Part shown: positions 13,293-55,511 of the stretch, piece after piece
Layout: the number at the start of each line of letters is the position of its first letter
How positions within the stretch are numbered: position 1 is the stretch's first letter
Assembly (NCBI GenBank): GCA_017650505.1
Contig: JAGCET010000001.1
Location: forward strand, 4,795 to 68,794
DNA: 64,000 nt
Direction of reading: 5' to 3'
Source of the DNA: Alphaproteobacteria bacterium
Lineage (GTDB): Bacteria; Pseudomonadota; Alphaproteobacteria; Rs-D84
Notes under the pieces: generated by a model
Told to the model about the DNA's origin: nothing
Seen by the model: the letters and a program-made list of their open reading frames with translations, nothing else
The model's database searches: none
Position numbers and translations under genes: made by a program

Positions 13293-13345
13293 TTGTTAGT
13301 GTTAGTGGATAGTGGTTAGTAAAAGGCGTGCGCACTAACCACTAC
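13293..13345. repeat. TTAGTG-rich intergenic element, copy 1
   Basis: Tandem-like GTTAGTG units followed by a perfect inverted repeat, AGTGGTTAGT (13311-13320) and ACTAACCACT (13334-13343). The right arm contains the TAG stop of the minus-strand rmuC gene. It lies between convergent genes. Confidence 0.7.
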
Positions 13346-14220
13346 TTCTCGAAATCTAATTCTTTTATTTTTTCTGCGCGGGGGGTGATTTTACCAATAG
13401 ATGTTTGCAGTTGTTCTATATCGGTTTGCGCCATATTGAAATGTTGCGAAACTTTGCTGGCACGTTCCGATAATCGCGCCAGGTCGGTCAACAACAGGTC
13501 TAGTTCAGTTTTTATTTTACCCGCAACACGTTTGATTTTTATGTCTGATAATATTGCGCGAATCGTGTTTAGTGTCGCCCACAGTGTCGATGGTGAAACA
13601 ATAAAGACTTTTTTTCGTGCCGCATATTCTATTGTGCCCGGAAATTCACGATGCAGTGTTTCAAATATCGATTCCGATGCGATAAACATCATTGCGGCAT
13701 CGGCGGTTTTGCCGGGAATAATGTATTTTTCGGAAATCGCATCAATGTGTTTACGAACGTCCAGTTCGAATTGTTTGCGATAAAGTTCGGTATTTTCACC
13801 GTTCAGCATATGATTATAAGATTCCAATGGAAATTTGCTGTCAATAATCATGTCGCCCGGCGGATAGGGCAGGCGGATAATACAATCGGGCCGAACACCG
13901 GTTTCCAATACGCTTTGAAAAGCATACGTTTCTGGTGGCATAATGTCGGCGATTAAATCTTCCAATTGCCGTTCGCCAAATGTGCCACGGGCCTGTTTAT
14001 TGCCCATAAGAATGTTTTTGAAATTTGCTATATCAGAACTGATGTTTTTTAATTCGGTGGCGTTTTGTGCCAATACGCCAAGTCTTTCGGCCAACCGTTC
14101 GCGCAGACGTGTGTTGTCTTCACGCAGTGCCGACATATCAACCGTTGCCGGTCGCATTAGCAGTGCCCCAAGCATTATAATAATTACCCCACACATCGCG
14201 ATTAAAATATAAGTTGTCAT
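13342..14220 (-). CDS. rmuC: DNA recombination protein RmuC
   Basis: 292 residues. One N-terminal membrane helix (about residues 3-23), a coiled-coil stretch (residues 28-65), then the RmuC nuclease-like core with GTFGERQLEDLI, RPDCIIRLP and MIIDSKFPLESY, the last resembling a PD-(D/E)XK motif. RmuC limits inversions and processes replication-associated structures. The ATG at 14220 has an AAAGGA site. An upstream ATG at 14247 has none. The stop codon lies inside a dispersed TTAGTG element. It is divergent from def, with overlapping promoters. Confidence 0.9.
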   Translation of the reverse strand: MTTYILIAMCGVIIIMLGALLMRPATVDMSALREDNTRLRERLAERLGVLAQNATELKNISSDIANFKNILMGNKQARGTFGERQLEDLIADIMPPETYAFQSVLETGVRPDCIIRLPYPPGDMIIDSKFPLESYNHMLNGENTELYRKQFELDVRKHIDAISEKYIIPGKTADAAMMFIASESIFETLHREFPGTIEYAARKKVFIVSPSTLWATLNTIRAILSDIKIKRVAGKIKTELDLLLTDLARLSERASKVSQHFNMAQTDIEQLQTSIGKITPRAEKIKELDFEK

Positions 14221-26814: not shown

Positions 26815-28395
26815 ATGAATATGTTTCAGTTTTTGGAAGGCGCCGTCAAGAAATGGCCGGACAAGTTATACCTAGTGCGGGAAAGCGTTTCTTTTGCAGA
26901 TTTTATGCATAAAATAAAATGTCGTGCCGCGACTTTGCATGAAAACGGTGTGCGCGCGGGCGATGTTGTTGGTATTTTGTCGCATAATATTCCGGCATTT
27001 CCGATTACTTTGTTTGCAATATGGTATTTGGGTGGCAGTGTTTTGTTGTTGGATACAAATTTGACCCCGTTCGAGTATGATAATATGGCCGCAATTACGG
27101 GATGTAAATTTGTCTGTGCGGAAAAATCGTTCTTTTACAAAACGGATAAGTTTACCTTCTTTGATATAACTGCCGAAGATGGTGAAGAAAACAAAAAACT
27201 GAAACCCGCAAAGTTAAAAGATTCTGATGTTGCGACATTGTCGTTTACTTCGGGGTCAACCGGCACGCCAAAGGTTGTACCACTGACGCATTATAATTTG
27301 GTGGAATGTGCGAATTCATTGCTGGATATGCAGGAATGGTTCGAAGTCGGCGATGTTATGTATGGGTTCTTGCCGATGTATCATATTTTCGGGTTTGCGG
27401 TGGAAATTTTGGCGACATTGCAATATGGTGCCGGGGTTTTGTTGCAACCAAATGTGAATCCTAAAGAATTCTTGGCGGATTTCAAGAAATATCGCCCGCA
27501 TGTAATTCCGGCGGTACCAAGATTGTTCGAGGTCTTCCGTAATAAAATCATAGATAGCATTAAATCGCAACACAAATGGGTTATGTTTAACTTTTTGGTA
27601 AAGAATGCCGGGTGGCTTAAGAAAATTGGGTTGGGCCGGTTGGTTGATATGTCGCGGAAACCGGTGTTAGAGGTGTTTGGTGGACGTGTAAAGTTGCTGA
27701 TTGCCGGTGGTGCCGCGACTAAACCAGAAATAGAAACATTCTTTACATCGCTTGGGCTTGGGTTTATCCAGGGATTTGGTATGACCGAAACGGTCGGACC
27801 AATTTGTATTTCTAAACCGTGTCGCGGACGTGTGCCGTTTGCATTTGGTGGTCCGACAACAAATAACGAAGTTGAAATTCGTGATAAAAATGAAGACGGT
27901 GTCGGAATTTTGTGGGTTCGTGGGCACCAGGTTTTCGGTGGATATATGAATAACGACGATATGAATCGCCAGGTTTTTGATGAACGTGGGTTCTTTAACA
28001 CCGGGGATATGGTGTCGATGGATAAAAATGGTGAATTGCACTTTGCCGGGCGTAAAAAACAGGTGATTGTTTTGGACAGTGGCAAGAATGTTTATCCCGA
28101 TGAATTGGAGGGGTTGTTTATCACGATTCCGGGTGTGAAAAATGTTGCGGTGTTTGAACATCGTGTCAAAGATAAAACCGTTGCATACGGCGTGTTTAGT
28201 GTCGCGGAAGATATGACAATGGAAAAACTGGGTGCGGCGATTGCCGCGGCAAATAAAAAGGTCGCTTCGTACAAATGGGTGACGCACTATGCAATGACGA
28301 CCGAAGATTTACCGACGACTAGTACGCAAAAGGTCAAACACCACGTCGTGCGGCAGAACCTTATTGATGGTAAATATCCGATAAGGAAAGAGTGA
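26815..28395 (+). CDS. Long-chain acyl-CoA synthetase-like AMP-binding enzyme
   Basis: 526 residues, adenylate-forming. The P-loop-like SFTSGSTGTPK lies near residue 145, with YHIFG, GGAATKPE and GFGMTE in the core and NTGDMVSMDKNG then GRKKQVIVLDSGKNVYP near residues 390-430. The C-terminal lid ends with TSTQKVKHH, where the catalytic Lys is expected. It activates a carboxylic acid, probably a fatty acid, to an adenylate and then to CoA (or ACP). Start at 26815 follows AAGGA. A second ATG lies two codons later. FadD-like is the best label, but acyl-ACP synthetases share this pattern. It is convergent with mnmE. Confidence 0.87.
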   Translation: MNMFQFLEGAVKKWPDKLYLVRESVSFADFMHKIKCRAATLHENGVRAGDVVGILSHNIPAFPITLFAIWYLGGSVLLLDTNLTPFEYDNMAAITGCKFVCAEKSFFYKTDKFTFFDITAEDGEENKKLKPAKLKDSDVATLSFTSGSTGTPKVVPLTHYNLVECANSLLDMQEWFEVGDVMYGFLPMYHIFGFAVEILATLQYGAGVLLQPNVNPKEFLADFKKYRPHVIPAVPRLFEVFRNKIIDSIKSQHKWVMFNFLVKNAGWLKKIGLGRLVDMSRKPVLEVFGGRVKLLIAGGAATKPEIETFFTSLGLGFIQGFGMTETVGPICISKPCRGRVPFAFGGPTTNNEVEIRDKNEDGVGILWVRGHQVFGGYMNNDDMNRQVFDERGFFNTGDMVSMDKNGELHFAGRKKQVIVLDSGKNVYPDELEGLFITIPGVKNVAVFEHRVKDKTVAYGVFSVAEDMTMEKLGAAIAAANKKVASYKWVTHYAMTTEDLPTTSTQKVKHHVVRQNLIDGKYPIRKE

Positions 28396-28457
28396 TAGTG
28401 GTTAGTGTTAGTGCGGGGCGAATGCCCAGTGTTTTTTATAACTAATCACTAATTACT
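28396..28457. repeat. TTAGTG-rich intergenic element, copy 2
   Basis: TAGTGGTTAGTGTTAGTG begins directly after the TGA of the ligase gene. The inverted relative ACTAATCACTAATTACT reaches the stop of mnmE, and a GGGC/GCCC hairpin lies between. It sits between convergent genes. Confidence 0.7.
28416..28437 (+). terminator. Terminator of the acyl-CoA ligase gene
   Basis: A GGGC-GAAT-GCCC hairpin is followed after 4 nt by TTTTTT, inside the TTAGTG element. The stem is short. Confidence 0.5.
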
Positions 28458-29815
28458 TACTTTCCCAAACATAATTGTGAAAATGTTTGGTTTATGACTT
28501 CGTCGGTGCCGATTGTGCCAAGTATTTTCCCAATCGCATCGGCGGCATATCGTACGTGTTCCGACATAATGTCAAAATCGCCGTTTGTTTTTTCTAATGC
28601 GTTTTTCAATTCGTTTGCGGTGGTTTTTAACAAATCGTATGTGCGGGCATTTATCATTAAAACAGATTCGCCATTCCCGGTTATGTCGCGTATGCGTTCG
28701 GTTATTGCGCGCAGTAATTTATCCATTCCGCGTCCGTCGCGCGCCGAAACATATATCGCGTTCGGTATATCGCGCGATTCGGTTATATCCGATTTATTCA
28801 CAACCAAAATTTCCACTACCCCGTCGGGTGCTACCCGCCACTCCTTCGCCAGCGAAGGGGAATTGTTTGCATTTATTACATGCAAAACTATGTCGGCATT
28901 TGCGATTTCGGTGTTTGTTCGTTCAATACCGATTCGTTCGACCGAATCGGTTGTTTCACGAATACCCGCCGTATCAGCCAGATTTACCAAAAATCCGTCA
29001 ATATCAAGATTGGCCGACACAACATCGCGGGTCGTGCCGGGGATGTCGGATACTATGGCGCGCGCGGTCCCAAGAATGCGATTGAACAAAGATGATTTGC
29101 CGACATTTGTTTCGCCAACAACCGCAATATTTATTCCACTGCGAATTGCACGCGCGGTGTTATATTTTGCCAATGCGGCGGAAACCGCTGTATAGAGAGT
29201 TTTTATTCTTTGCAAAACGGTGTCAAAAATATTCGGTGGCAAATCGTCCGGTGCGTAATCTGTCATTGCAAAAATGTATGCAGATATGTCCAACATTTGG
29301 TCGCGCCAGTTTGCATATATTTCGCCGTCGCCGCCCATCATAGATTTTAATGCGGCGGCGCGTTGTTTGTCTGTCTGTGCATCAAGCAAAGCGGCCAATC
29401 CATCCGCATCGGACAAATCCATTTTGCCATTATAAAATGCGCGTCGTGAAAATTCGCCGGGTGTGGCGATTCGCATATCGTGCGTGCCCAGGAATTCAAA
29501 AATTTTGTTTATTACCGCGGGTGCGCCATGGCATTGAATTTCTATGACATCTTGTCCGGTAAAACTGTGCGGTGCGGCGAAGTATATGACAACACATTGA
29601 TCAATAATCTCATTCGTATCATCGGTCAGGTTTGTAAAATACGCCCGACGTGGCACCACTACCCCACCGCTTCCAGCGGTCCCCCCCTTCGCCGGCGAAG
29701 GGGATATAAGGCGGTGTGCAAAGTTTTCTAGATTGTCGCCCGATATTCGAATCACCGCCACGCCAGATTTGCTGTGGCCCGATGAAAGTGCAAAAATTGT
29801 ATCGTTGTCATTCAT
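28457..29815 (-). CDS. mnmE: tRNA modification GTPase MnmE with two in-frame inserts
   Basis: 452 residues. The N-terminal folate-binding domain has PRRAYF and SFTGQDVIEIQCHG. The G domain has GETNVGKSSLFN, DTAG and NKSD. The C-terminal motif QLCLGK closes the chain. MnmE with MnmG modifies U34 of tRNAs. Two short inserts share the pattern SPSxAKxxxxAxxGxVV: one in the N-domain loop (residues 38-53) and one in the G domain just before the NKxD strand (residues 319-334). Both are encoded by 49-bp palindromic elements and read in the same frame. Both lie in expected surface loops, so the protein is probably functional. It overlaps the upstream ruvA stop by one base. Confidence 0.95.
   Translation of the reverse strand: MNDNDTIFALSSGHSKSGVAVIRISGDNLENFAHRLISPSPAKGGTAGSGGVVVPRRAYFTNLTDDTNEIIDQCVVIYFAAPHSFTGQDVIEIQCHGAPAVINKIFEFLGTHDMRIATPGEFSRRAFYNGKMDLSDADGLAALLDAQTDKQRAAALKSMMGGDGEIYANWRDQMLDISAYIFAMTDYAPDDLPPNIFDTVLQRIKTLYTAVSAALAKYNTARAIRSGINIAVVGETNVGKSSLFNRILGTARAIVSDIPGTTRDVVSANLDIDGFLVNLADTAGIRETTDSVERIGIERTNTEIANADIVLHVINANNSPSLAKEWRVAPDGVVEILVVNKSDITESRDIPNAIYVSARDGRGMDKLLRAITERIRDITGNGESVLMINARTYDLLKTTANELKNALEKTNGDFDIMSEHVRYAADAIGKILGTIGTDEVINQTFSQLCLGK
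28813..28861 (-). repeat. 49-bp palindromic element inside mnmE, copy 2
   Basis: On the minus strand it opens with TCCCCTTCGCTGGCGAAGG, a near-perfect palindrome, and closes with GGGGTAGTGG. The middle 20 nt form a second hairpin (CGGGT/ACCCG). The first 19 and last 10 bases match the copy at 29656-29704 with one difference, and the total length is the same. It is in frame. Confidence 0.85.
29656..29704 (-). repeat. 49-bp palindromic element inside mnmE, copy 1
   Basis: On the minus strand it opens with TCCCCTTCGCCGGCGAAGG, has an ACCGCT-GGA-AGCGGT hairpin in the middle and ends GGGGTAGTGG. The spacing to copy 2 is a multiple of three, so both are translated in the same phase (SPSPAK and SPSLAK). 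Confidence 0.85.
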
Positions 29816-30441: not shown

Positions 30442-31158
30442 ATGAGCGGACATAGCAAATGGCATAATATACAACACAAGAAAGGACTGGCCGATGCGGC
30501 ACGCAGCGGTCTGTTTACAAAATTGGCGCGCGAAATTACAATGGCGGCTAAGTTGGGCGATAAAAATCCCGACAATAACCCGCGCCTTCGTTTGGCGATT
30601 TTACAGGCGCGCAAGAATTCTATGCCGAATGATAATATTAAACGCGCAATTGACAAGGCGTCGGGTTCAAATACCGAAAACTATGTTGCGGTGCGGTACG
30701 AAGGCTATGGCCCCGGTGCGGTACCGGTTATTGTAGAGGCGTTGACCGATAATCCGCGGCGCACAGTGCCCGAGGTAAGAAATATCTTTGCCAAAAACGG
30801 TGGAAATATGGGCGAAGAGGGCAGTGTCGCGTTCTTGTTCACCCGCGCGGGCCAGATTTTCTATCCATCGTCAATTGGCAAGACCGAAGACGAAATGATG
30901 GAAATTATTATGGACGCCGATGCAGATAATCTGGAAACTACCGAGGAGGGTTTTATCATTACGACTAAGCCCGATGATTTTATGAATGTGCAAAAGAAAA
31001 TTGCAGACGTGTTGGGCGAACCGGAAAATGCAGAATTGACATGGGTTCCGAATATGCCGATGGAATTAGATGACGAAGCATATGCAAAAATCGAAAAGTT
31101 GGTTGATGCATTGGATGCCAATGACGATGTGCAAAAGGTATTTACCGCCGCCGCATAA
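30442..31158 (+). CDS. yebC: YebC/PmpR-family regulatory protein
   Basis: 238 residues. MSGHSKWHNIQHKKG opens the chain, as in almost all YebC proteins, followed by KLAREITMAAK, NARLRLAI-like and NIKRAIDKA segments and a three-domain layout. Members bind DNA as regulators and, in some bacteria, help ribosomes through proline stretches. The ATG at 30442 has AAAAGG. Longer frames are rejected because the family start is so constant. It is placed between ruvA and ruvC but on the opposite strand to both. yebC-ruvC-ruvA-ruvB is the common bacterial order, so the block has been rearranged. Confidence 0.94.
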   Translation: MSGHSKWHNIQHKKGLADAARSGLFTKLAREITMAAKLGDKNPDNNPRLRLAILQARKNSMPNDNIKRAIDKASGSNTENYVAVRYEGYGPGAVPVIVEALTDNPRRTVPEVRNIFAKNGGNMGEEGSVAFLFTRAGQIFYPSSIGKTEDEMMEIIMDADADNLETTEEGFIITTKPDDFMNVQKKIADVLGEPENAELTWVPNMPMELDDEAYAKIEKLVDALDANDDVQKVFTAAA

Positions 31159-31191
31159 TTAGTGGTTAGTGTAAGTGGTTAGTGATTAGTG
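31159..31191 (+). repeat. TTAGTG-rich intergenic element, copy 3
   Basis: AGTGGTTAGTG, then AGTGGTTAGTGATTAGTG, starting right after the yebC stop and ending at a terminator hairpin. It sits between convergent genes. Confidence 0.7.
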
Positions 31192-31216
31192 AAATCGCCC
31201 AAATGGGCGGTTTTCT
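31192..31216 (+). terminator. Terminator of yebC
   Basis: CGCCC-AAAT-GGGCG stem extended by A/T pairs, then TTTT. Confidence 0.65.
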
Positions 31217-53922: not shown

Positions 53923-55317
53923 ATGAAAAAAATTCTTTTGGGTGCGTTTTTGGCACTGGTTTTTGTTTGTGATGGGTTTGCCGGGTGTAATTCGGCGATT
54001 ACGTTGATGTATAAGGGTAATCAACGGCCGGCAGATGATGAGTTTTTGTATGAAAGTGAATATCAGTGGCAGGCTTCTAAGCAAGGGTGGGAAAATACCA
54101 GACATCAAACTTCGGGCGATGGTAAGGGATTTGAATGTGACCAAGTAAAATCTGCAAGTTGTACGGCCAACGAAGTGGTAACGATGAGTGCGGGGCATTA
54201 TTGGCAGGGTAAAAAGATAAATCAGACACGTAAGTATCAATGTTGGGGTTGGTGGGCACGCGGTGGATTGAATGACAGGTGGGTCGTTGTTGATGATGGT
54301 ATGTGTAACTCACGTCAATTTGGGGATATACCTGTTGGTGGTGCATATAGTAGGGCGTTAACGAAGGCAGAATGTAGCGGTTATAAAAAGACAGATGAAA
54401 CGCATGGTGTAGAATTTCAGTTGCGGTGTCAAGAAGGTAGAAACCTTATATGTTGGGCAACGAAGTGTGATGATGCGAATATGAAACCGAATGCAGATGG
54501 TGTTTGTGTGGGTGGTGGTGTGGTGCCACCCGGTCCTAAACCAGACAATAGATCTTGCCGGGAAAAGCGTGCGGGTATGAGTCAGACGGCACTTGCATGT
54601 TGCGATACCGGGACCGAGGGGGATTATGATAAGGCAAGCGATAAATGTGTATGCAAGGGTGGTAAGACCTTTGAAATCGTAAGTGGGCGTGGACAATGTG
54701 TAGTCAAAGATAAGCCGGGACCAGATCCGACGGTGCAATGTCCGCCCGAGGAGACGTATCAGGATGGTTTAACATGTAAATGCAAAGACCGGTCGAAAGT
54801 GTACAATCCAAATACCAGGAAATGCGAAGGTGGTCTTGTGACAAAGCAGTGTCCGTCGTATTCAACCCCGGTTGGTGATACATGCAAGTGTGATAATGAA
54901 GGTATGGAATATGATGCCGCCGGTAATTATTGCAAATGTACGATTGCCGATGCCCGAACAGAAAGTGGTAGATGCAAATGTAATGATGCAAACAAAGAAG
55001 TCAAAAACGGCAAGTGCGAATATAGCAAGTCGTATTTGGATGTTTTGGCAAGGATAGAGGCGTTGTATACTTCATTAAGTTCGACAATGGGCGGATTTGA
55101 AAAGTCTGTATGGAAAGATGCCGAAGGGAACTTTAACACTGCGCGTTTGGCGTCGGACAGTATTGCGGGTGTCGTGCTTGGGACCGCGGGTGGTATTATC
55201 ACGGCGAAAATCGTGAAAAAGAACCAATTAAAGCAGGGGTTTGAAGATATTAAATGCGCAATCGGTGGCCAAAATATCGCAAGTTATGGCGACACTATGA
55301 CGGTCGGGTTGCAGTAG
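53923..55317 (+). CDS. Secreted Cys-rich modular protein with terminal membrane segment
   Basis: 464 residues. A signal peptide (MKKILLGAF..., cut near residue 20, after GFAG) is followed by an N-terminal unit with WW and GHYWQGKK motifs (residues 45-140). From residue 180 a chain of short Cys-rich units follows: CKC-type repeats with Gly and Asn-Pro turns, resembling EGF-like modules, separated by Pro-Gly linkers (VVPPGPKP, GPDP). A coiled segment lies at about 372-400. Ser-Ile-Ala-Gly-Val-Val-Leu-Gly-Thr-Ala-Gly-Gly, near residue 420, is a glycine-rich membrane-like helix before the basic tail. Most likely a surface-exposed adhesin-like or structural protein. No named family is recognised. 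Confidence 0.75.
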   Translation: MKKILLGAFLALVFVCDGFAGCNSAITLMYKGNQRPADDEFLYESEYQWQASKQGWENTRHQTSGDGKGFECDQVKSASCTANEVVTMSAGHYWQGKKINQTRKYQCWGWWARGGLNDRWVVVDDGMCNSRQFGDIPVGGAYSRALTKAECSGYKKTDETHGVEFQLRCQEGRNLICWATKCDDANMKPNADGVCVGGGVVPPGPKPDNRSCREKRAGMSQTALACCDTGTEGDYDKASDKCVCKGGKTFEIVSGRGQCVVKDKPGPDPTVQCPPEETYQDGLTCKCKDRSKVYNPNTRKCEGGLVTKQCPSYSTPVGDTCKCDNEGMEYDAAGNYCKCTIADARTESGRCKCNDANKEVKNGKCEYSKSYLDVLARIEALYTSLSSTMGGFEKSVWKDAEGNFNTARLASDSIAGVVLGTAGGIITAKIVKKNQLKQGFEDIKCAIGGQNIASYGDTMTVGLQ

Positions 55318-55350
55318 TTGGTGGCTAGTGATAGTGGTTGGTGATTAGTG

Positions 55351-55375
55351 AAAACGGCGCATAGCGCCGTTTTTT
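55351..55375 (+). terminator. Terminator of the Cys-rich protein gene
   Basis: Stem AAAACGGCGC/GCGCCGTTTT with loop ATA, followed by TT. A textbook intrinsic terminator. Confidence 0.9.
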
Positions 55376-55387
55376 GTTCCAGATAAC

Positions 55388-55413
55388 AAGTTCCCCTCTT
55401 GAGAGGGGAACTT
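55388..55413. repeat. 26-bp near-perfect palindrome
   Basis: AAGTTCCCCTCT and AGAGGGGAACTT around a TG centre, 12 bp per arm. It sits between the terminator and the inverted TTAGTG unit, upstream of yajC. Confidence 0.7.
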
Positions 55414-55511
55414 ACACTAACCACTAACACTCTCGCACTATTTCCTTTACTTATCGTTTTTTTTTGTCTATTCTGGGGGCAAATAATAATAAAACCAAAA
55501 GGAGAAAAGTC

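What the first reader, a model, noticed from the sequence alone, without database searches (positions are those of the whole stretch)
28813..29704. Two in-frame 49-bp palindromic elements inside mnmE
Seen: at 29656-29704 and 28813-28861 (minus strand) two units of equal length share their first 19 bases (one difference) and last 10 bases, while the middle 20 nt differ but still form a hairpin. Both are read in the same phase as SPSxAK...GVV, one in the folate-domain loop and one right before the NKxD strand of the G domain. Known: Rickettsia palindromic elements (RPE) insert in frame in this manner. Inference: this genome has its own mobile or expanding palindromic element that tolerates protein insertion.
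Basis: partly seen in the sequence, partly recalled or inferred. Interest (0 to 1): 0.78.

Follow-up and report, generated by a model that had tools for sequence, protein, structure and literature searches.

The report
Hairpin repeats spliced into a tRNA-modification protein
Two short palindromic DNA repeats sit in frame inside the tRNA-modification gene mnmE of an uncultured bacterium; they belong to a large family of double-hairpin repeats, seen in many relatives and in a second phylum, whose tail sequence follows the sequence of its first hairpin as a third DNA strand would.

Summary
In detail: two 49-nt units in mnmE, same phase, constant ends, different middle hairpin. The inference is largely right, with corrections. 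The units are half-elements of a family: hairpin SL1, hypervariable hairpin SL2, tail GGGGTAGTGG. The window holds only these two; its genome is not held. In relatives' MnmE the same two loops are filled in 23 and 34 of 119 proteins, with several element kinds; outgroups are empty. A strict pattern matches 54 of 201 genomes of the order. In 0.88 Mb of one genome (G191) I count 315 elements, 34 inside 24 reading frames that align to homologues on both sides (enolase, MutS, a Der-like GTPase and others). New here: SL1 and tail are linked across the exchangeable SL2. The tail follows the SL1 5' arm (C to G, T to T or A), as in a class II purine-motif intrastrand triplex; in a second phylum 39 of 39 halves agree at the informative position. 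By the tests made it is neither a Rickettsia palindromic element nor a RAYT-driven REP. It resembles known intrastrand triplex repeats, with a hairpin in place of the short second loop. How it moves is unknown; triplex formation is inferred, not shown.

The parts
28457..29815 (-). mnmE (tRNA modification GTPase), 452 codons, host gene of both units
   Evidence: ORF; Pfam TrmE_N, MnmE_helical, MMR_HSR1; NCBIfam MnmE equivalogs above cut-off; solved MnmE structures hit by sequence and by fold
29656..29704 (-). unit 1, in-frame half-element in a loop of the N-terminal domain
   Evidence: site empty in many relatives
29684..29703 (-). unit 1, SL1 hairpin, CGC class (CCCCTTCGCCGGCGAAGGGG)
29666..29680 (-). 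unit 1, SL2 hairpin stem and loop (the variable module)
29656..29665 (-). unit 1, tail GGGGTAGTGG
28813..28861 (-). unit 2, in-frame half-element in the G domain just before the NKxD strand
   Evidence: site empty in many relatives
28841..28860 (-). unit 2, SL1 hairpin, CGC class, with a changed outer stem (GGAG)
28823..28839 (-). unit 2, SL2 hairpin (the variable module, different from that of unit 1)
28813..28822 (-). unit 2, tail GGGGTAGTGG

Best explanation
The two units are solo half-elements of a dispersed, REP-like repeat family: hairpin SL1, hypervariable hairpin SL2, tail. Shown: the architecture, its multi-copy dispersal, inverted pairs of different types, gain and loss of copies between close relatives, in-frame copies in many genes, repeated occupation of the same two MnmE loops, and a position-by-position link between SL1 and tail. 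Inferred: as single-stranded DNA (for example at the replication fork) SL1 folds, SL2 acts as the turn, and the G-rich tail lies back in the groove of SL1 as the third strand of a class II purine-motif triplex; this folded form is what some unidentified function recognises when the element is copied or moved. Because the element is short, open in several frames, and enters loops while some target sequence is lost, host proteins survive its insertion.
For: Short loops in outgroups and many relatives; by my string labels, five insert kinds at site 2 and three at site 1; fewest changes on the MnmE tree 18 (site 1) and 25 (site 2), the latter 31 by kind. Order: 54 of 201 genomes match, reversed control 1 match in 201. 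SL1 type and tail linked: mutual information 1.75 bits, shuffle maximum 0.50, n 94, with 4 of 86 SL2 modules shared between types. Parallel, same-register code: 29 units, 80 matches against 50.7 expected, 0 of 20,000 shuffles; with one unit per tail (12 units) p 0.00018 for simple complementarity and 0.00004 for the triplex code. Further data: in a second phylum, 39 of 39 distinct halves (35 C to G, 4 T to A at position 6; Fisher 1.2e-5); in new stretches of five genomes of the order, 43 of 44. SL2 covariation: 79 cells changed on both sides against 27.2 in shuffles, all in SL2. G191: among 117 strict copies, whole SL1 identical in 113, tail GTGG in 114, 60 different SL2. 34 of 315 G191 elements lie inside reading frames aligned on both sides to homologues; Pfam was run on ten of the 24 frames and names all ten.
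Against: No biophysical or in-cell evidence of a triplex here. Tail GGGGT was required by the detection, and a gap of at least 10 nt between SL1 and tail, so only tail positions 6 and beyond are informative and short-loop relatives could not be seen. In the second phylum the pattern also fixed tail position 6 to A or G. Several SL1 types fit poorly (TCTCAT with TGGTTG; position 8 C to G in 21 of 33 halves), and opposite arm G the tail is mixed. Many 5' arms carry A or G at positions 8-9, so the uninterrupted run is about 7 nt. RAYT genes are present in some element-bearing genomes, in one (G191) with a half-like sequence about 0.9 kb away. No mobilising enzyme was identified and no clear target duplication seen. 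Tree changes can be inflated by recombination and weak branches (29 of 115 inner branches starred). Strict copies share CCCCTT and AAGGGG by construction; 2 of the 60 SL2 look spurious. Some in-gene alignments are weak and one shows no net gain (L216:1790, net -9).
Confidence: 0.66

Rival explanations
1. An ordinary REP/BIME family moved by a REP-associated tyrosine transposase (RAYT); the SL1-tail link would be a guide and cleavage-site relation like that of IS200/IS605 ends.
For: Dispersed GC-rich palindromes, inverted pairs, GTAG or GTGG within the tail. RAYT model NF047646 matches 9 of 201 genomes of the order; 5 of these 9 (G006, G187, G191, G192, G194) also match the strict element pattern against 54 of 201 overall, and G191 is the richest genome. 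A half-like sequence lies about 0.9 kb from the G191 RAYT gene. Guide and cleavage sequences co-vary in IS608 and in one REP system (passages of PMC5934647 and PMC8266576).
Against: Only 1 of the 9 matches is above the curated cut-off, one is an IS200-type gene and one has a stop; PF01797 matches 5 of 201, 4 above cut-off. Element-rich G179, G085, G122, G185, G012, G061 and G003 are not among the matches. The immediate flanks of the two RAYT genes that I read (G191, G187) carry other hairpins. The GTAG-like motif lies 3' of the hairpins; REPs carry it 5'. The relation here is collinear; the IS608 pairs A+16:T-3 and A+17:T-4 run crosswise.
Confidence: 0.17
2. An RNA-level element: transcribed double hairpins that act in mRNA stability or termination and spread by gene conversion; the tail code would reflect an RNA fold.
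For: Covariation in SL2 fits a folded single strand, RNA or DNA; most elements of G003 (25 of 31) and of the fetched places of G012 (27 of 36) were not placed in a gene by the alignment test.
Against: In six element-rich loci (63 kb) Rfam finds rRNA, tRNA and one sub-threshold plastid match only, at E up to 0.1. G191 copies lie in genes in both orientations. Class II triplex with a G-rich third strand is characterised for DNA of a similar repeat (PMC4666352, sections 15 and 17).
Confidence: 0.12
3. The MnmE segments are useful loops of the protein kept by selection, and the DNA similarity is secondary.
For: Only two copies in the window, both in mnmE; two random places would both fall there in about 0.05% of cases (arithmetic from 1359 of 64000 bases).
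Against: Close relatives lack them, kinds and reading frames differ between species, and like DNA occurs between genes and in other genes.
Confidence: 0.03
4. The repeated occupation of the two loops comes mainly from recombination that spreads a few old filled alleles between strains, not from many insertions.
For: Near-identical PFAG segments recur in distant rows of the tree; many inner branches are weak.
Against: Five kinds by my labels sit at site 2, and single halves, longer inserts and inverted pairs alternate, so several insertions or replacements are needed in any case.
Confidence: 0.3

Closest known systems
Intrastrand triplex motifs, class II (TM_ECO of E. coli; Holder et al. 2015, PMC4666352; abstract, passages and sections 15 and 17 seen)
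   Same: Order pyrimidine-rich arm, purine-rich arm, reverse-Hoogsteen tail; G-GC and A(T)-AT triads; multi-copy GC-rich repeats; association with unstable loci.
   Different: The second loop is a hypervariable hairpin (13-25 nt in G191 strict copies) instead of 1-6 nt, so a search with that loop limit should miss it (inference); TM_ECO is described as always intergenic in E. coli MG1655, these also sit in frame in genes; the TM_ECO sequence itself was not compared here.
Rickettsia palindromic elements (RPE)
   Same: Palindromic repeats inserted in frame in genes, several families in one genome (passages of PMC10969869 and PMC3733652).
   Different: RPEs are given as about 150 bp (PMC10969869), and the REP-like ones as ending in CGTC (PMC3733652); these are 45-50 nt halves with other ends and a constant-variable-constant plan.
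REP, BIME and REPIN elements with RAYT
   Same: Short GC-rich palindromes, inverted pairs, several types per genome, some intragenic copies (passages).
   Different: GTAG-like motif on the other side of the hairpin, two hairpins per half, no consistent RAYT, tail tied to SL1.
Double-hairpin elements and GC clusters of mitochondrial genomes
   Same: Small mobile-looking palindromic units (recalled; only search listings seen).
   Different: Not compared at sequence level; different hosts.

Membership tests
Class II intrastrand triplex repeat | Pyrimidine arm 5', purine arm next, G-rich third strand 3' | tested here: met
   This order in the halves listed. With a qualification: the arm is pyrimidine at positions 1-7 in most halves (G at position 5 in 68 of 354, A or G at 6 in 12, at 7 in 7) but A or G at position 8 in 280 of 354
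Class II intrastrand triplex repeat | Tail obeys G-GC and A/T-AT triads | tested here: met
   Statistically, not at every position: 1111 of 1262 pyrimidine-arm positions 5-9 fit, shuffles mean 829, maximum 877, tail position 5 fixed by the detection; p 0.00004 with one unit per tail; 39 of 39 in a second phylum at position 6
   SL2 hairpin stands there; halves with shorter loops would not have been detected
Class II intrastrand triplex repeat | Triplex forms in solution | not testable with these tools
   Needs spectroscopy or probing
Rickettsia palindromic element | In-frame insertion in protein genes | tested here: met
   mnmE twice in the window; a G011 gene with endonuclease III motifs (names recalled), net +30 nt against G003; 24 reading frames in G191
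Rickettsia palindromic element | CGTC at one end (as described in PMC3733652) | tested here: not met
   Ends are TCCCC and GGGGTAGTGG
Rickettsia palindromic element | Match to a curated RPE protein model | tested here: inconclusive
   None among the 25 of 32 NCBIfam families shown; that such models exist is recalled
REP/RAYT system | GT[AG]G tetranucleotide 5' to the hairpin foot | tested here: not met
   The motif lies 3' of both hairpins on the strand that starts with SL1
REP/RAYT system | Cognate RAYT flanked by the repeat | tested here: not met
   NF047646 in 9 of 201 genomes, 1 above cut-off; the immediate flanks of 2 of these genes were read and carry other hairpins; the other flanks were not read
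REP/RAYT system | Inverted dimers | tested here: met
   Inverted pairs, usually of two types, in G012, G003 and others

The most novel reading that the evidence does not exclude
A cross-phylum family of mobile DNA whose parts recognise each other by a triple-helix code: the tail must match the first hairpin, new types arise by joint change of both, and the middle hairpin is made anew or exchanged at nearly every copying event, so that one genome holds dozens of different middle hairpins between identical ends, many of them read as peptide inside housekeeping proteins.
Probability: 0.33. Interest if true: 0.87.

Novelty: new variant of a known kind. Interest (0 to 1): 0.74.

Why it matters
It gives another case, outside Rickettsia, of palindromic DNA spreading in frame through housekeeping proteins, and it offers sequence-covariation evidence, testable in a tube, that a DNA triplex code may be under selection in natural repeats. 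The linked SL1 and tail types are ready-made swap experiments. The two MnmE loops are a natural series of insertions in one widely conserved protein. The hypervariable hairpin between constant ends poses a concrete question about how such units are copied.

Tried and rejected
RAYT as the mobiliser: searches of 19 and then 201 genomes and reading of two gene flanks did not support it, though it is not excluded. Rickettsia elements: ends do not fit. Rfam: only rRNA, tRNA and one sub-threshold match in six loci. Target-site duplications: 17 comparisons printed and judged by eye (one, #17, is not an element; some compare two filled sites); none shows a clear duplication; target sequence is lost or replaced, one nested replacement (L114 against L206) and one likely deletion remnant (L107 against L200). 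Other registers and antiparallel pairing of tail and SL1: of ten tests, parallel 0 stands out; parallel +1 has p 0.042 and antiparallel +1 p 0.028. SL2 as captured host sequence: 20 of 60 G191 SL2 sequences also occur outside CCCCTT copies, and most of those shown were other SL1 types of the same family. Restriction to one order: rejected. Literature searches that turned up no description of this family: (open-access library only; the listings were capped).

Dropped or selected rows: 1 of 120 homologues (P0119, 402 aa) is left out of the 119-row counts; 23 pattern matches without an SL2 stem were left out; units with fewer than two supporting copies were left out. For the second phylum I picked 30 places with hairpin-like SL2 by eye from the listing, which shows the tail but not SL1; with two loci fetched by that call they gave 51 matches, of which 9 lacked an SL1 hairpin, 3 were duplicates and 39 were counted. 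In one search the pattern had about 168 matches in 53 genomes and the reversed control about 42 in 27 (my addition), so single matches there may be chance. The five further order genomes are not wholly held out: single loci of some of them were in the first set. The 227 'halves' count places more than once and are not used. In one search, G003 and G012 give 6 and 9 flagged elements; apart from mnmE they lie in frames with repeated flanks or weak support.

Full report
Observation. A covariance model made from 40 halves of other genomes finds these two and no third in the 64-kb window. The same model finds none at E up to 0.01 in 354 kb from 20 of the 80 related loci, chosen without L003, L014 and L020, which carry elements. 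No whole genome is held for the window, so copies elsewhere in this organism could not be counted.

Host protein. The gene is mnmE: Pfam, NCBIfam, sequence and fold agree. The AlphaFold model is of moderate quality (mean pLDDT 69.4); residues 40-50 and 320-330, inside the two inserts, are below 50, as are eight other short segments. The alignment to Thermotoga TrmE places insert 1 in the N-terminal domain and insert 2 just before the NKxD strand.

Relatives. The best 120 of 7,999 scored homologues are 65-79% identical, the window's own entry apart; the nearest genome records are titled uncultured proteobacteria or Alphaproteobacteria, many from rumen. That the order is the one GTDB calls RF32 is recalled, not from a call. 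In 119 of the 120, site 1 is filled in 23, site 2 in 34, both in 9. Outgroup genomes have the short loops, so empty is taken as ancestral. On a quick tree built without the insert columns the fewest changes are 18 and 25, or 31 at site 2 by kind; recombination may inflate this. The insert replaces part of the loop: 49 nt come in, and the net gain is 24 nt at site 2 and 33-36 nt at site 1 against most relatives. In L014 site 2 holds a complete inverted pair of two different halves, net gain 96 nt over its close relatives L003 and L011.

The family. A half is: SL1 (CCCC... ...GGGG hairpin), SL2 (variable hairpin), tail GGGGT.... Halves stand alone or as inverted pairs, usually of two types. The strict CCCCTT pattern matches 54 of 201 held genomes of the order, the reversed control once; at least two of the 54 (G025, G036) lack SL2. 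In an even sample of 385 genomes of the class 8 match, of which two (G003 of the order itself and G418) show double hairpins by eye; control matches occur there too. With an SL2-plus-tail pattern, 53 of 247 genomes of the phylum of a genome titled Flavobacteriales match (about 168 matches, reversed control about 42), several with many hairpin copies (G989 26, G993 15, G838 10); in the phylum of a genome titled Bacilli 1 of 245, without a hairpin. The tools name no groups; I take the first to be Bacteroidota and the second Bacillota.

Constant ends, variable middle. In the part of G191 fetched, 117 strict copies (CCCCTT and AAGGGG fixed by the pattern) have the same whole SL1 in 113, tail GTGG in 114, and 60 different SL2, two of which look spurious. 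In an alignment of 40 halves, pairs change on both sides in 79 cells against 27.2 in shuffles, all of them in SL2; covariation score 0.519 against 0.197. SL2 modules are shared between SL1 types (4 of 86; more across types in G191).

The code. SL1 type and tail are tied, although the exchangeable SL2 lies between them. Read in parallel and in register, the tail complements the SL1 5' arm far more often than chance, and the result survives with one unit per tail. Over 21 units at positions 6-9, arm C goes with tail G in 29 of 36, arm A with T in 12 of 15, arm T with T in 9 and A in 7 of 19, arm G with T in 5 of 14. T opposite T is not complementarity but is allowed in a purine-motif triplex, where the tail runs antiparallel to the purine arm of SL1. 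I then looked at data not used to find the code: in the second phylum, 35 halves have C and G, 4 have T and A, none disagree (selection described under tried and rejected). In new stretches of five genomes of the order, T goes with A in 33 of 33 and C with G in 10 of 11; single loci of some of these genomes had been in the first set. Class II intrastrand triplex motifs with this strand order and these triads are known bacterial repeats, with short loops (PMC4666352). Here the second loop is a hairpin. I could not test triplex formation.

In genes. In 876,910 bases of G191 I count 315 elements, 34 of which lie in 24 reading frames that align on both sides to homologues in other fetched genomes. 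Pfam was run on ten of the 24: enolase, FtsJ, MutS, a DEAD-box helicase, transketolase, UvrD, a radical SAM protein, a pseudouridine synthase, a GTPase with a KH-like domain (Der-like) and Dus. Some alignments are weak, and one shows no net insertion. In G011 one copy is in frame in a gene with endonuclease III motifs (name recalled), net +30 nt against G003. In G003 (31 elements) and the fetched places of G012 (36), mnmE is the clear intragenic target; most of the rest were not placed in a gene. G191's own mnmE shows no insert at site 1 and no long gap at site 2 by segment search.

Movement. Filled and empty sites in G012 and G003, with flanks mostly 90-98% identical where both sides align well, show gain, loss, a nested replacement and a likely deletion remnant, without clear target duplications. 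RAYT genes match in few genomes, and two of them carry other hairpins at their immediate flanks. The mobiliser is therefore unknown.

Verdict. It works like an in-frame palindromic element (as in Rickettsia) built on what looks like a class II triplex plan; by the membership tests it is neither an RPE nor a RAYT-driven REP, and it differs from the described triplex motifs by its hairpin loop. I file it as a new variant of a known kind.

Noticed in passing
window 28389-28412, 31156-31214, 55315-55373, 55410-55433, 13333-13370: A second short repeat, variants of TTAGTGGTTAGTG, recurs in the window and beside some double-hairpin elements in relatives.
   Followed up: no
L227:1288-1872 and flanks (G187): A RAYT gene flanked on both sides by the same pair of hairpins (TGGTGGGGCGACTTTG...), a REPtron-like unit with its own repeat, distinct from the CCCCTT family.
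   Followed up: partly
L226:1283-1330 and 1920-1950 (G191): The RAYT gene of G191 lies between GTGATAAAAT...GGGTGGGGG repeats, not the CCCCTT family; a CCCCTTGAGGGG half-like sequence lies about 0.9 kb downstream.
   Followed up: partly
mnmE site 2 in L186 (G003) and L011 (G011): Some empty mnmE sites hold small imperfect hairpins of their own (GCAACCGGTGTGACCGAACCGTTG), possibly scars of earlier elements.
   Followed up: no
P0041, P0042, P0052, P0086: Long site-2 inserts of other kinds (PPCGHPS.QRGTLLSP..., PPAVPADPFL.RRG) suggest further element classes or stacked insertions in MnmE.
   Followed up: no
G418:C2:45783-45834 and G418:C12:32615-32662: A larger genome (1.5 Mb) of the same class carries double hairpins of the same plan; its place relative to the order was not told.
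   Followed up: no
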